Part shown: positions 8,715 through 33,303 of the stretch, piece by piece | How positions within the stretch are numbered: the first letter of the stretch is position 1 | How the letters are laid out: each line of letters begins with the position of its first letter | Assembly: GCF_010727325.1 (NCBI RefSeq) | Contig: NZ_AP022565.1 | Span: 4,898,001 to 4,962,000 of the forward strand | Source: Mycolicibacterium alvei | GTDB lineage: Bacteria; Actinomycetota; Actinomycetes; Mycobacteriales; Mycobacteriaceae | Reading direction: 5' to 3' | DNA length: 64,000 nt | Notes under the pieces: generated by a model | What the model was told of the DNA's origin: nothing | What the model saw: only the letters and a program-made list of their open reading frames with translations | The model's database searches: none | Translations under genes and position numbers: made by a program

Positions 8715-9764
8715 TCAGGACGCAGTCCCGTGGTTGCTCGCCGGGGCGACCGCGGGGGCCGGGGCGGGCGTGATGACGGGCTGGGTGCCCGCCGGAACCA
8801 ACGCGGGCTCGCCGGCCGGTGCCGGGGCAGCCGGAGCGGCCGGAGCGGCCGGAGCAGCCGGAGCAGCGGCGGGTGCACCCTCGGCGGGCACACCCTCAAC
8901 CGGCGTCAGCGCGGTCGCGGCGTTGCCTGCACCGGTGGCGGCCGGTGCCGGGGCACCCTCGGCGACCGGGGTGCCGTGCGCGACCGGGGTCGACTCGGGA
9001 GCCGGAGCACCCGGTGCCGGTGCGGCCGGAACCGCTTCGGCGTCAACCGGGGTGGCGGCCGGGGCGCCCGGAGCGGCGGCAGGCAGGTCCGCCGCGCGGC
9101 TACCTGCACCGGTGCCGGCCGGTGCGGCCGGGACGGCAGCGGGCGCGGGGGCCGGGGATGCGGCGGCCGGAGCAGCAGCCGGAGCGCCGGCAGCGGGTGC
9201 GGCGGCCGGGGCTGCAGCCGGAGCCGCGGCGGGAGCCTGACGCTTCGGGGCGTCGGCGGCCGGGCTTGCAGCGGGTGCGGCACCCTTGTCCCACGCCAGC
9301 ACGTCGTGGCCACCGGCGTTGTAGACGACCGAGGTCGGCTGGTCACCGGTCACGTCGAAGTAGATCTTGCCGCTGGTCTTCTGGCCCTGTGACAGGGTGG
9401 CCGGGTTGACGCCCTGCGCGCTGGGCACCTGGAACAGCGCGCGGTAGTTCTGCCCATCGGCGGCGCGAATGTTGAAGTTGGAGACGATCGGCGTCACCGA
9501 GCCCTCGAGAGCTTCATTCGTCGCGGTGACTTCCCACAGGGTGCCGCGAGGCGTGTAGTTGATGGTGTCGGTGCTGGGCTTCAGGTCGGTGACCGTCCAG
9601 CTCTGGGTGCCGTTGTCCAGCTTGCCCTGGCCGCCGAGCGCGGCGGTGGTGACGGCGTTGTCGTCGGCGCTGGCGTCGGCGAGCGCCATCGGGGCGCTGG
9701 CGACGATGGCCGCGGCGGCAATAGCCGCAGCGGCAAAGGCCGTACTGATGTTTGACTTCTTCAA
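8715..9764 (-). CDS. Secreted MPT63-domain (DUF1942) protein with long Ala/Pro-rich tail
   Basis: A TTG start at 9764 is preferred: GGAG lies 8 nt upstream and the product opens with LKKSNISTAFAAAA, a signal peptide cut near MALADA. The mature protein has an MPT63/DUF1942 immunoglobulin-like domain (about residues 35-165: GTLWEVTATNEALEG, IVSNFNIRAADGQNY, GKIYFDVTGDQPTSVVYN). It then has about 170 residues of Ala, Pro and Gly low complexity (APAAAP repeats). MPT63 itself has only the domain. Role unknown; a cell-wall-spanning or surface tether is possible for the tail. Confidence 0.85.
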   Translation of the reverse strand: MKKSNISTAFAAAAIAAAAIVASAPMALADASADDNAVTTAALGGQGKLDNGTQSWTVTDLKPSTDTINYTPRGTLWEVTATNEALEGSVTPIVSNFNIRAADGQNYRALFQVPSAQGVNPATLSQGQKTSGKIYFDVTGDQPTSVVYNAGGHDVLAWDKGAAPAASPAADAPKRQAPAAAPAAAPAAAPAAGAPAAAPAAASPAPAPAAVPAAPAGTGAGSRAADLPAAAPGAPAATPVDAEAVPAAPAPGAPAPESTPVAHGTPVAEGAPAPAATGAGNAATALTPVEGVPAEGAPAAAPAAPAAPAAPAAPAPAGEPALVPAGTQPVITPAPAPAVAPASNHGTAS

Positions 9765-31112: not shown

Positions 31113-31186
31113 GCCCCCATAGCCCAATTGGCAGAGGCAGCGGACTTAAAATCCGCCAAGTGTCGGTTCGAGTCCGACTGGGGGCA
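31113..31186 (+). tRNA. tRNA-Leu (anticodon UAA)
   Basis: The cloverleaf folds well: acceptor GCCCCCA pairs with TGGGGGC, anticodon stem GCGGA/TCCGC with loop CTTAAAA (anticodon TAA at 31147-31149), and T-arm GTCGG-TTCGAGT-CCGAC. The discriminator is A, and CCA is not encoded. The variable arm is only five bases (CAAGT), unusual for a leucine tRNA, which normally has a long arm. The 3' half served as the integration site for the element that follows. Confidence 0.94.
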
Positions 31187-31187
31187 C
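31161..31187 (+). other. attL-type core at the 3' end of tRNA-Leu
   Basis: These 27 bases (T-arm and 3' acceptor strand of the tRNA) recur at 33277-33303 with one mismatch (T at 31168, G at 33284). A 3' tRNA segment repeated at both edges is the normal result of tyrosine-integrase insertion that restores the tRNA. Confidence 0.85.
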
Positions 31188-31233
31188 CGTGTCGATTGTG
31201 GCATCGTGGCTGGTAGAAGCCATATCGCGGCGT

Positions 31234-31992
31234 CTATCCGGCGGCCTGAGCGCGCTTTGCCCACATTTTGCCCACAGTCTCATCTAATTTGTCGGCAACC
31301 CCAGTGAGGTCGTCATCGAATAAGTCGGCGTACACGTCCAATGTCATCGCCGCCGAGGAGTGTCCGAGCATTCGCTGAATCACCTTCACGTTGGCCCCGG
31401 CTGAGATCGCCAACGACGCCGCGGTGTGCCGCAGCGCGTGCGCCGTAACACGCGGGACTACCGGTGTGGTCGGTTCCTTGCCGCCCTTGCTTTCCTTGGC
31501 CCTGGCCGCGGTGGCGGCGGTCTGGCAGCGTCCGACCGAACCGGACAGCCAGGAATCGTGTGACGACGGGGGACCGAGGTGGCCACCGTCGCGGGCCGGC
31601 CAGATCAGGTCACCGTGCTGCTTGCCCCGGCATGTCTTCGCCAGCTCGTCAACGACGAACGCGGGCAACACAACCGTGCGTTCCTTGCCTGACTTCAGCG
31701 TGCCCAGGTGGACATCAGCGCCGACCGCGACAGCGTTCTCGTGAAATACCACTTTGCGTTTGAGGAAGTCGAAGTCACCGACCCGCAGCGCCGCAGCCTC
31801 GCCCCAGCGCAGGCCGGCCGTTCCGAGCAACAACACCAGCGACAGGTACCGGCCCGACTCCACGGCGAGCACCTGGAGCTGCTCGGCGGTCAAATAGATG
31901 TTCTTCCGCTTGGACCGGGCCGGGAGCTTCACGCCCCGAGCCGCGTTGCGCGCCAAGCACGCGGCAGCAGCCCGCGTGTTCGAGGCGGTCAC
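31234..31992 (-). pseudogene. Tyrosine integrase, catalytic domain only
   Basis: The 252-residue product has all catalytic residues of a tyrosine recombinase: GLRWGEAAALRVGDF (first Arg near 62), LKSGKERTVVLP, AHALRHTAASLA (HxxR), MLGHSSAAMT and the nucleophile Tyr in LDVYADLF. The usual N-terminal arm-binding domain and most of the core-binding domain are absent: homology starts at about LARNAARGVKLP near 31965 and the frame opens at ATG 31992. Full integrases are about 370-400 residues. It lies next to attL, as expected, but can hardly act alone. Confidence 0.85.
31258..31276 (+). repeat. Paired TGCCCACA sites, left end (putative integrase arm sites)
   Basis: TGCCCACA occurs at 31258-31265 and 31269-31276, exactly 11 bp apart, 71 nt from the att core and within the integrase C-terminal codons. 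The same doublet with the same spacing lies at 33179-33197 near the right end. Arm-type sites for tyrosine integrases have this arrangement. Confidence 0.6.
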
Positions 31993-32065
31993 CGGTCACA
32001 CTGTCGGCAAGGTGGAGCTGATTGACGAAGACGACACAGTGATCCGGACGCGCTCAGCCGAGTAG
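31976..32065 (+). pseudogene. C-terminal end of an unidentified plus-strand gene
   Basis: An open plus-strand frame encodes VFEAVTGHTVGKVELIDEDD then TVIRTRSAE and a stop at 32063-32065. The composition looks protein-like, with an acidic then basic end, but no start or upstream part exists; upstream it would be antisense to the integrase. It is most simply the tail of a gene joined to the integrase by deletion. Family not recognised. Confidence 0.35.
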
Positions 32066-32555
32066 GTGGCCGAATCCCTCAGCCGGCAGGTGATAGCGCA
32101 GTGCCCAGCCGGGCTTGTTGTGGCGCAGACAGTCGCGGATCGCGTCGGCCTGCTGATCGTGGGGCGCATCGGTCAGGCCGGCGTCGCAGAGGATGATCCA
32201 GCCCATGTGTGCGTCGCCGAACGTGCCGATCGTGCCAGCCTTCACGTTGGTGGACGGCACCTGGTCGACCAGTCGGCGCATCTCGACTGTCTCCTCGTAC
32301 AGGTGATCGCGGCACTGGCGCCATCGAGCAGCCAGTCGATCGCGTCGCGCACTGCGGACACGATGTCATGAGGGATCGGGTAGTGCGCCGCGGTGATCGC
32401 ATGCAGGAGATCGTAGAGAGCAAAGAATGGCTCTCCGCCGTGCAGAGCATTGAATATGACACTGCGCCGTCGTCGAGGCAGGGATCAGCCGCGTCGGCGA
32501 GTGCCTCGGCGATGTCGTAAGGGTCAGGTGGTGCGGTGTTCACGTCGTCTCTCAT
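32054..32555 (-). pseudogene. Unidentified gene broken by two frameshifts
   Basis: Joining three minus-strand frames gives one continuous protein of about 165 residues. The first part is 32555 to about 32460 (MRDDVNTAPPDPYDIAEALA ... DDGA). The second is about 32460 to 32315 (IFNALHGGEPFFALYDLLHA, then HYPIPHDIVSAVRDAIDWLL). The third is about 32315 to 32054 (QCRDHLYEETVEMRRLVDQV ... FGDAHMGWIILCDAGLT ... NKPGWALRYHLPAEGFGHLL). The original start overlaps the NADAR stop in ATGA, so the two were an operon. Function not recognised. Confidence 0.7.
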
Positions 32556-33106
32556 GGTCGGCGATCGGAGCCCGATGGGTAACGAATATCAGCCGAGCAG
32601 GAAGGGGCGCGTTTCAAACGCGACCCTTGTGGATTTGAAATCGCAAGCCGCATCCGGATGACCATCAGGATGACGCCGAGCGCGTTGTCGCCGGGGACGT
32701 CGCGGTGTTCGTCGCAGGTGCAGGTTCCCCAGGTTTGGTCGTGCCAGGTGTTGCCCTCCACCAGGACGGTGCCCGCCGTGGCGATCAGCTTGTGGGCGAG
32801 ATCGGGGTTGTGGGTGAACTTGGCGGTGAGGATGTCTTCCATGGCCGCGTACTTGCGGGTTCCCCAGTGGTCGACGAGCGGCGCCGCGGCCGCGATGGTC
32901 TTGGCTTCATTCGGGTCTTCGGTTGCGAGGATCGCGGCGATCGCGGCCTGGTCGTCGGTCTTGGCGGCCATGTATGCGTGCTCACTCGTCGGGAACAGAT
33001 GGCCACGGTGTGGCGTCACCGCGGGGTAATGGTTCGACAGGAAGAAATGCTCACCGCGGAACCGATCGATCACCGGCACCAGTAATCTGTCACTCGTTCC
33101 CGCCAC
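32552..33106 (-). CDS. NADAR-domain (YbiA-like) protein
   Basis: The 184-residue product from GTG 33106 matches the NADAR family. Seen are IDRFRGEHFFLSNHYPA (the F-SN stretch), HLFPTSEHAYMAAKTDD (conserved Glu-His of the active site, as in YbiA PTSEHYFQA), and GNTWHDQTWGTC (D-x-x-WG). NADAR proteins are N-glycosidases; some remove ADP-ribose from guanosine and serve as antitoxins of DarT-type DNA ADP-ribosyl transferases, others act on riboflavin intermediates. It lies inside the tRNA island; no DarT-like partner is left. The last 30 residues after VILMVIRMRLA are not family-like. Confidence 0.8.
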   Translation of the reverse strand: MAGTSDRLLVPVIDRFRGEHFFLSNHYPAVTPHRGHLFPTSEHAYMAAKTDDQAAIAAILATEDPNEAKTIAAAAPLVDHWGTRKYAAMEDILTAKFTHNPDLAHKLIATAGTVLVEGNTWHDQTWGTCTCDEHRDVPGDNALGVILMVIRMRLAISNPQGSRLKRAPSCSADIRYPSGSDRRP

Positions 33107-33178
33107 GGCACCCAACCTAGCTGTCGCTGTCAACGCGACGATCCGGGATGGACTCACCAGTCCGTCCCATTCATTCAC

Positions 33179-33197
33179 TGCCCACATTCTGCCCACA
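33179..33197 (+). repeat. Paired TGCCCACA sites, right end (putative integrase arm sites)
   Basis: TGCCCACA occurs at 33179-33186 and 33190-33197 with an 11-bp period, 79 nt before the right att core. The orientation and spacing are those of the left-end doublet at 31258. Confidence 0.6.
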
Positions 33198-33276
33198 GTT
33201 ACAGATACTGTCAGTGATCTACGGTGATGCCTTTGGTCAGGTAAACCCGCTGTGGGGCAGTCGATCTGGGCCGCTA

Positions 33277-33303
33277 TGTCGGTGCGAGTCCGACTGGGGG
33301 CAC
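33277..33303 (+). other. attR-type copy of the tRNA-Leu 3' end
   Basis: This is a 27-base copy of 31161-31187 with one mismatch in the T-loop. There is no tRNA 5' half here, so it is not a tRNA gene but the outer edge of the integrated element. Confidence 0.85.

What the first reader, a model, noticed from the sequence alone, without database searches (positions are those of the whole stretch)
31161..33303. NADAR-bearing genomic island remnant in tRNA-Leu(UAA)
A 27-bp tRNA 3'-end repeat brackets a 2.1 kb element with a truncated tyrosine integrase, one gene broken twice, and an intact NADAR (YbiA-like) gene. NADAR proteins are antitoxins or ADP-ribose removers in DarT-type DNA ADP-ribosylation systems, so the sole intact cargo may be the surviving half of an anti-phage module. 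It may also give the host protection against foreign DarT. Selection to keep this gene while its neighbours decayed is the interesting point.
Basis: partly seen in the sequence, partly recalled or inferred. Interest (0 to 1): 0.8.

Follow-up and report, generated by a model that had tools for sequence, protein, structure and literature searches.

The report
Decayed mycobacterial island keeping NADAR gene
A small, mostly deleted phage-like island sits in a leucine tRNA gene of a mycobacterium and still carries an open gene for an enzyme of a kind that removes ADP-ribose from guanine bases; no toxin partner was found and nothing shows that selection has kept the gene, so the remnant itself is ordinary, though relatives of the gene sit unexpectedly beside proteasome genes in some other mycobacteria.

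Summary
A 26/27-bp copy of the tRNA-Leu(UAA) 3' end brackets 2.1 kb, with a second 21-bp repeat pair inside the ends. It is an internal-deletion remnant of a phiRv/PICI-like element: an intact 9.4-kb relative (L055) at the same tRNA has a 93%-identical integrase, a matching right end, a capsid gene and a SoFic-like gene in the cargo slot. Here the integrase lacks residues 1-155, the middle gene is in three pieces, and the NADAR frame is open with Glu72, Lys79 and Glu147 kept. That makes it YbiA-type, not the DarT1-linked (Asp) type. No DarT was found in this genome or 12 other NADAR-bearing relatives. Intact relatives of the middle gene model as all-helical, unlike a transferase. Selection to keep NADAR is not shown: the truncated integrase is equally lesion-free over 232 codons. 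Best reading: stand-alone ADP-ribose N-glycosidase, accessory cargo of a satellite-like element. The most novel lead lies outside the window: in five mycobacterial genomes a related NADAR sits between prcA and pafA of the Pup-proteasome locus.

The parts
31113..31188 (+). tRNA-Leu(UAA), integration site; left attachment copy is its 3' end 31161-31187
   Evidence: ARAGORN; repeat
31258..31278 (+). left copy of a 21-bp direct repeat, probable arm-type integrase site (inference)
   Evidence: similar pairs near both ends of L057, L059 and, as a variant, L022
31234..31992 (-). truncated tyrosine integrase (residues 156-387 of a 388-aa relative); DNA similarity to relatives ends at about 31953-31958, the probable deletion joint
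   Evidence: PF00589; tblastn to L055 integrase; blastn ends
31957..32065 (+). tail of a + strand reading frame of unknown origin beyond the joint
   Evidence: ORF list; no phage match for 31940-32062
32060..32543 (-). middle gene in three pieces (32451-32543, 32311-32469, 32060-32314), two frame breaks; relative of L020 8769-9473
32552..33106 (-). NADAR (YbiA-type) gene with likely GTG start at 33106; longest open frame reaches 33196
   Evidence: PF08719 E=1.4e-24, TIGR02464 76.2 bits vs cut-off 73.7; E72/K79/E147 numbered from 33196; start codons
33172..33276 (+). right end of the element, 85% identical to the right end of intact element L055; holds the right 21-bp repeat 33179-33199
33277..33303 (+). 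right attachment copy of the tRNA 3' end (26/27)

Best explanation
Shown: the 2.1-kb segment is a deletion derivative of a satellite-like (phiRv/candidate-PICI-type) element that integrated into tRNA-Leu(UAA). Both attachment copies and both inner repeats remain. The integrase N-terminal part is gone, and so, by comparison with L055, are the genes between it and the cargo; what is left next to the right end is a frame-shifted gene and an open NADAR gene. Inferred: the NADAR works alone as an N-glycosidase that takes ADP-ribose off guanine in nucleic acid (or off small ADP-ribose derivatives) and was accessory cargo of the element, protecting element or host against guanine-ADP-ribosylating toxins or ADP-ribose-based defence signals of others. 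It is not half of a DarT pair.
For: Att repeats unique in the genome. L055: tRNA-Leu(UAA) with an element of about 9.4 kb, integrase 93% identical, right-end 105 bp 85% identical, capsid PF05065 3e-15, weaker scaffold (phrog_4708 8e-5) and excisionase-like (phrog_66 4e-5) genes, Fic PF02661 / SoFic cargo. Related integrases at the same tRNA: L056, L057, L059, and L058 with an interrupted integrase. NADAR relatives in L020 (D5_N gene, 46-bp tRNA-Leu copy), L022 (integrase 42% to L055's, between two tRNA-Ala copies, with PD-T4-6-like kinase) and L060 (integrase judged by eye, next to tRNA-Gly). The NADAR itself scores against a PADLOC candidate family, PDC-M42C, E=6e-10, and phrog_1017, function unknown, E=7e-39. 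E72, E147, D153, W156 kept in 117-118 of 119 relatives, K79 in 93 (25 have R). All NADARs assayed in PMC11125620 (passages), E. coli YbiA included, hydrolysed guanosine-ADPr in vitro.
Against: No activity data for this protein; TIGR02464 names it a riboflavin-intermediate N-glycosidase; no capsid, replication or complete integrase gene remains in the window, so satellite origin rests on the integrase and ends; the outer residues (1-35, 188-214) are unlike most relatives, so expression and start are uncertain; the curated anti-phage NADAR model NF053876 is far from met (36.7 of 240 bits); five relatives have a proteasome-locus context that is not obviously defence, and one (G323) another chromosomal place.
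Confidence: 0.6

Rival explanations
1. The remnant is neutral debris: NADAR is simply a frame not yet broken and has no selected function now.
For: The integrase fragment, which cannot be a whole enzyme, is also lesion-free over 232 codons and shows dN/dS 0.085 against L055, so open frames here do not show selection. If two frameshifts fell at random over 152 NADAR, 232 integrase and 166 middle codons, both hit the middle gene with probability about 0.09 (own arithmetic).
Against: NADAR core dN/dS 0.19 against G285 (0.19-0.35 against the other rows of the genus, distant L094 included; 0.59 against Tsukamurella) with the invariant columns kept, though most of those paths predate the decay.
Confidence: 0.3
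2. NADAR and the middle gene form a two-gene system of the mobile cargo slot (partner, regulator or immunity pair); the window copy has lost the partner.
For: The two genes overlap in the window (NADAR then middle gene) and in L020 (middle gene then NADAR, overlap 9470-9473), in opposite order. Two further members of the family lie on contigs whose length equals that of a NADAR contig to the base: P0123/P0031 6,522 and P0127/P0009 127,723 (not checked on DNA).
Against: Of the ten genomes with a strong NADAR match, only two (G000, G202) have the middle gene beside it. Strong relatives of the middle gene occur in 21 of 396 genomes (best E<=1e-40), of which one (G202) is among the 15 with a NADAR match; in 13 of 14 loci fetched, a gene of one cluster lies close by, and its L119 member is COX1, E=4e-163.
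Confidence: 0.15
3. YbiA-like metabolic role: damage control of riboflavin-pathway intermediates, carried by chance on the element.
For: TIGR02464 above its cut-off.
Against: No riboflavin gene seen next to the element-borne relatives in L020, L021, L022 and L060, judged from gene calls and from the family hits of some of the genes; many neighbours have no family, so this is weak.
Confidence: 0.15
4. Surviving antitoxin of a DarT- or YarT-type toxin pair.
For: NADARs are antitoxins in DarT1 operons and one YbiA in a YarT operon (PMC11543638, PMC11125620; passages and one section).
Against: YbiA-type Glu instead of Asp; no PF14487 in own genome or 12 others; the linked gene's family models as all-helical.
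Confidence: 0.07

Closest known systems
Candidate Mycobacterium PICIs / phiRv1-phiRv2-like elements (PMC10654092, passages read)
   Same: Tyrosine integrase at a tRNA gene with attL/attR; a relative with the same integrase carries a capsid gene
   Different: The window copy has lost capsid, replication genes and the integrase N-terminal part, so it is a remnant
E. coli YbiA (PDB 2b3w) and the NADAR of PDB 8bau
   Same: NADAR domain with the Glu, Lys, Glu pattern
   Different: Island-borne here; only these two chains match the window protein at E<=1e-3 (6e-9 and 7e-8); function untested
DarT1-NADAR toxin-antitoxin (PMC11543638)
   Same: NADAR domain
   Different: No DarT, Glu not Asp at the last catalytic position
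NADAR family anti-phage protein DS32_2 (NF053876)
   Same: Same domain, E=2e-9
   Different: 36.7 bits against a cut-off of 240

Membership tests
Candidate mycobacterial PICI (PMC10654092) | Integration genes in a phage-like region | tested here: inconclusive
   Only the C-terminal 232 residues of the integrase remain
Candidate mycobacterial PICI (PMC10654092) | Major capsid gene in the same region | tested here: not met
   No capsid hit among the four frames of the element scanned, and no room for one; relative L055 has one. So the window is a remnant of such an element, not a member by this definition
Candidate mycobacterial PICI (PMC10654092) | attL/attR at a tRNA gene for tyrosine integrases | tested here: met
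NADAR superfamily (PF08719), YbiA-type | Domain score above cut-off | tested here: met
   87.6 bits vs 35.1
NADAR superfamily (PF08719), YbiA-type | Glu (not Asp or His) at the last catalytic position, plus Glu and Lys of the first motif | tested here: met
   E147, E72, K79; mapping via the 8bau alignment, and residue numbers in PMC11543638 section 12
NADAR superfamily (PF08719), YbiA-type | Hydrolysis of guanosine-ADPr | not testable with these tools
   needs enzyme assay
DarT1-NADAR toxin-antitoxin | Adjacent DarT gene | tested here: not met
   PF14487 absent from own genome and from all 13 genomes given, own included
DarT1-NADAR toxin-antitoxin | Asp at the last catalytic position (BC4488 subfamily) | tested here: not met
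   Glu147
YarT-YbiA toxin-antitoxin | Partner with ADP-ribosyltransferase fold | tested here: inconclusive
   Intact relatives of the middle gene model as all-helical, pLDDT 91.5, with no PDB match at E<=1e-3
DS32_2 NADAR anti-phage protein (NF053876) | Score above curated cut-off 240 | tested here: not met
   36.7 bits

The most novel reading that the evidence does not exclude
A mobile YbiA-type NADAR lineage of mycobacteria, carried in the accessory slot of satellite-like islands (at times with an orphan helical partner gene), has been taken into the Pup-proteasome locus of one mycobacterial clade, between prcA and pafA, where it is under purifying selection; ADP-ribose removal would thereby be tied to Pup-proteasome or DNA-damage physiology.
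Probability: 0.3. Interest if true: 0.65.

Novelty: new member of a known kind. Interest (0 to 1): 0.38.

Why it matters
It places a YbiA-type NADAR with a complete catalytic set among the accessory genes of mycobacterial satellite-like islands, and it corrects the tempting DarT reading. The side finding, a NADAR between prcA and pafA in five mycobacterial genomes, gives a concrete and easily tested entry to what stand-alone NADARs do in a cell, a question that PMC11125620 leaves open (passages read).

Full report
The observation. The window belongs to a 6.0-Mb genome; its genus is Mycobacterium in the wide GTDB sense, judged from the named relatives. tRNA-Leu(UAA) lies at 31113-31188. Its 27-base 3' stretch recurs at 33277-33303 with one change; shuffles give none and the genome has no third copy within two mismatches. 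A second repeat pair, 21 bp, lies inside the ends (31258-31278, 33179-33199). By a strict pattern, similar pairs sit near both ends of L057 and L059 and a variant pair in L022; L055 and L056 have one match each; L058, L020 and L060 none. They look like arm-type integrase sites (inference).

What the element was. The integrase frame matches residues 156-387 of a 388-aa integrase at 93%; DNA similarity to relatives stops at about 31953-31958. So a deletion took the integrase N-terminal part. The intact relative in L055 occupies the same tRNA, spans about 9.4 kb to a 25-26-bp tRNA copy, and shares the last 105 bp before the right copy at 85%. It carries a capsid gene, weaker excisionase-like and scaffold matches and a Fic gene that scores as SoFic next to the right end, where the window has NADAR. 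Related integrases occur at this tRNA in L056, L057, L059 and, interrupted, L058. This fits the candidate PICIs and phiRv elements of PMC10654092 (passages read). The window copy no longer meets that paper's capsid criterion. Of six relatives with matching flanks that I fetched (L051-L054, L064, L065), four hold partial tRNA-Leu 3' copies (L053, L054, L064, L065), so the site looks like a hot spot. None of the listed matches from the other 395 genus genomes spans the element (only two candidate places per genome were scored and the list is cut).

The NADAR. PF08719 at 87.6 bits, TIGR02464 at 76.2 against 73.7, a PADLOC candidate family PDC-M42C at E=6e-10, phrog_1017 at 7e-39. Phage records with a tblastn match: 417 of 50,697, all under 60% identity. 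PMC11543638 (section 12 read) names E43, K50 and E125 of P. nicotianae NADAR, and D171 in the DarT1-linked E. coli C7 protein at the place of E125. In chain 8bau, which I take to be the P. nicotianae protein, the matching residues fall two positions later and align with E72, K79 and E147 here (the two-residue offset is my reading, consistent for five residues). Among the 119 listed relatives other than the window's own (of 190 found, 120 listed), E72 is kept in 117, E147 in 118, K79 in 93 with 25 Arg. Hence YbiA-type. The core shared with most relatives is residues 36-187; the first codons overlap the right 21-bp repeat, and GTG 33106 is the likely start.

Partner and context. No DarT in the own genome or in the 13 genomes given, own included; the control rang in 1 of 14 genomes, so sensitivity for divergent DarT is unknown. 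NADAR matches occur in 15 of 396 genus genomes. Ten are strong (E<=1e-59), giving 11 loci: five loci in four genomes in phage-like or integrase-bearing regions (window, L020, L021, L022, L060; L021 and the L060 integrase judged by eye), five between prcA and pafA (L014/G359, L023/G190, L024/G185, L025/G059, L062/G319), one other chromosomal place (L061/G323). Dop, Pup, PrcB, PrcA and PafA were named by NCBIfam in L024; the other four loci were matched to L024 (L014 begins at pup). Zero to two or more other genes lie between NADAR and pafA. The two genes after pafA, which I recall as pafB and pafC, were not tested. The other five matches are weaker and were not analysed closely. The proteasome-locus NADARs fall in a 17-row clade with support 100/98: the five loci, P0051, which is identical to the G319 protein, and 11 rows whose context I did not see. 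dN/dS of G190's copy against three others is 0.09-0.12.

The middle gene. Seventeen full-length relatives were found at E<=1e-19, with one more short, weak match (only the 7,997 best candidates were scored). In L020 the gene overlaps the NADAR start; in the window the order is reversed, with an overlap too. Two more pairs share exact contig lengths. Against a fixed pair: of the ten strong NADAR genomes only G000 and G202 have it beside NADAR; 115 of 396 genomes have some match to the family, 21 with a best E<=1e-40, and only one of these 21 has NADAR; in 13 of 14 loci fetched a gene of one cluster lies nearby, tested in one of them as COX1. The model is all-helical with pLDDT 91.5 and no firm structural match. 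Its C-terminal part resembles small Gordonia phage proteins.

Selection. The NADAR core has dN/dS 0.19 against G285. But the truncated integrase is open over all 232 codons with dN/dS 0.085 against L055. Both values mostly record time before the deletion. The two frameshifts fall in the middle gene only, which chance gives in about 9% (own arithmetic). So 'kept by selection' is possible but not shown.

Mechanism. Shown: anatomy, loss of parts, conserved active site. Established elsewhere: the NADARs assayed in PMC11125620 removed ADP-ribose from guanosine in DNA, and those in PMC11833690 did so on RNA (passages read of both); PMC9503650 (passages read) proposes that phage NADARs counter ADP-ribose signals; PMC13092281 (one passage read) mentions NADAR-domain proteins among its classes of defence proteins. 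Inferred: that this NADAR does the same as accessory cargo.

Verdict. The remnant is a new member of a known kind. The DarT story is unlikely. The prcA-NADAR-pafA arrangement deserves its own look.

Noticed in passing
L014 1965-2423, L023 9582-10037, L024 9788-10264, L025 9792-10250, L062 9738-10214: YbiA-type NADAR between prcA and pafA of the Pup-proteasome locus in five mycobacterial genomes; dN/dS 0.09-0.12 for one copy against three others; the searches listed no paper on it.
   Followed up: partly
L022 4693-12860: 8.1-kb island between two tRNA-Ala(TGC) calls in G160 (its NADAR is identical to P0013, named M. basiliense): integrase, NADAR, a PD-T4-6-like kinase and an uncharacterised 393-aa protein with weak PD-T7-5/PD-T7-1 scores.
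   Followed up: partly
L119-L132: Orphan helical protein family (relatives of the window's middle gene) near a gene of one cluster, COX1 in L119, in 13 of 14 fetched mycobacterial loci; no Pfam family for the three NADAR-type members scanned.
   Followed up: partly
L139 13353-14996 and L140 3050-4711 (own genome): Two more related integrases in the same genome, at tRNA-Leu(CAA) (65% identical to L055's) and tRNA-Pro(CGG) (44%); one might act on the remnant in trans, untested.
   Followed up: no
L053, L054, L064, L065: The tRNA-Leu(UAA) region of close relatives holds partial tRNA copies of 43-48 bp, two copies each in L053 and L064, so other insertions have used this site.
   Followed up: no
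L055 10016-11269: SoFic-like Fic protein as cargo of the intact sister element (PADLOC 8e-47).
   Followed up: no
L029 2178-5474: Rhodococcus phage Weasels2 encodes a NADAR match 2 kb from an annotated ADP-ribosylglycohydrolase, which follows thymidylate synthase.
   Followed up: no
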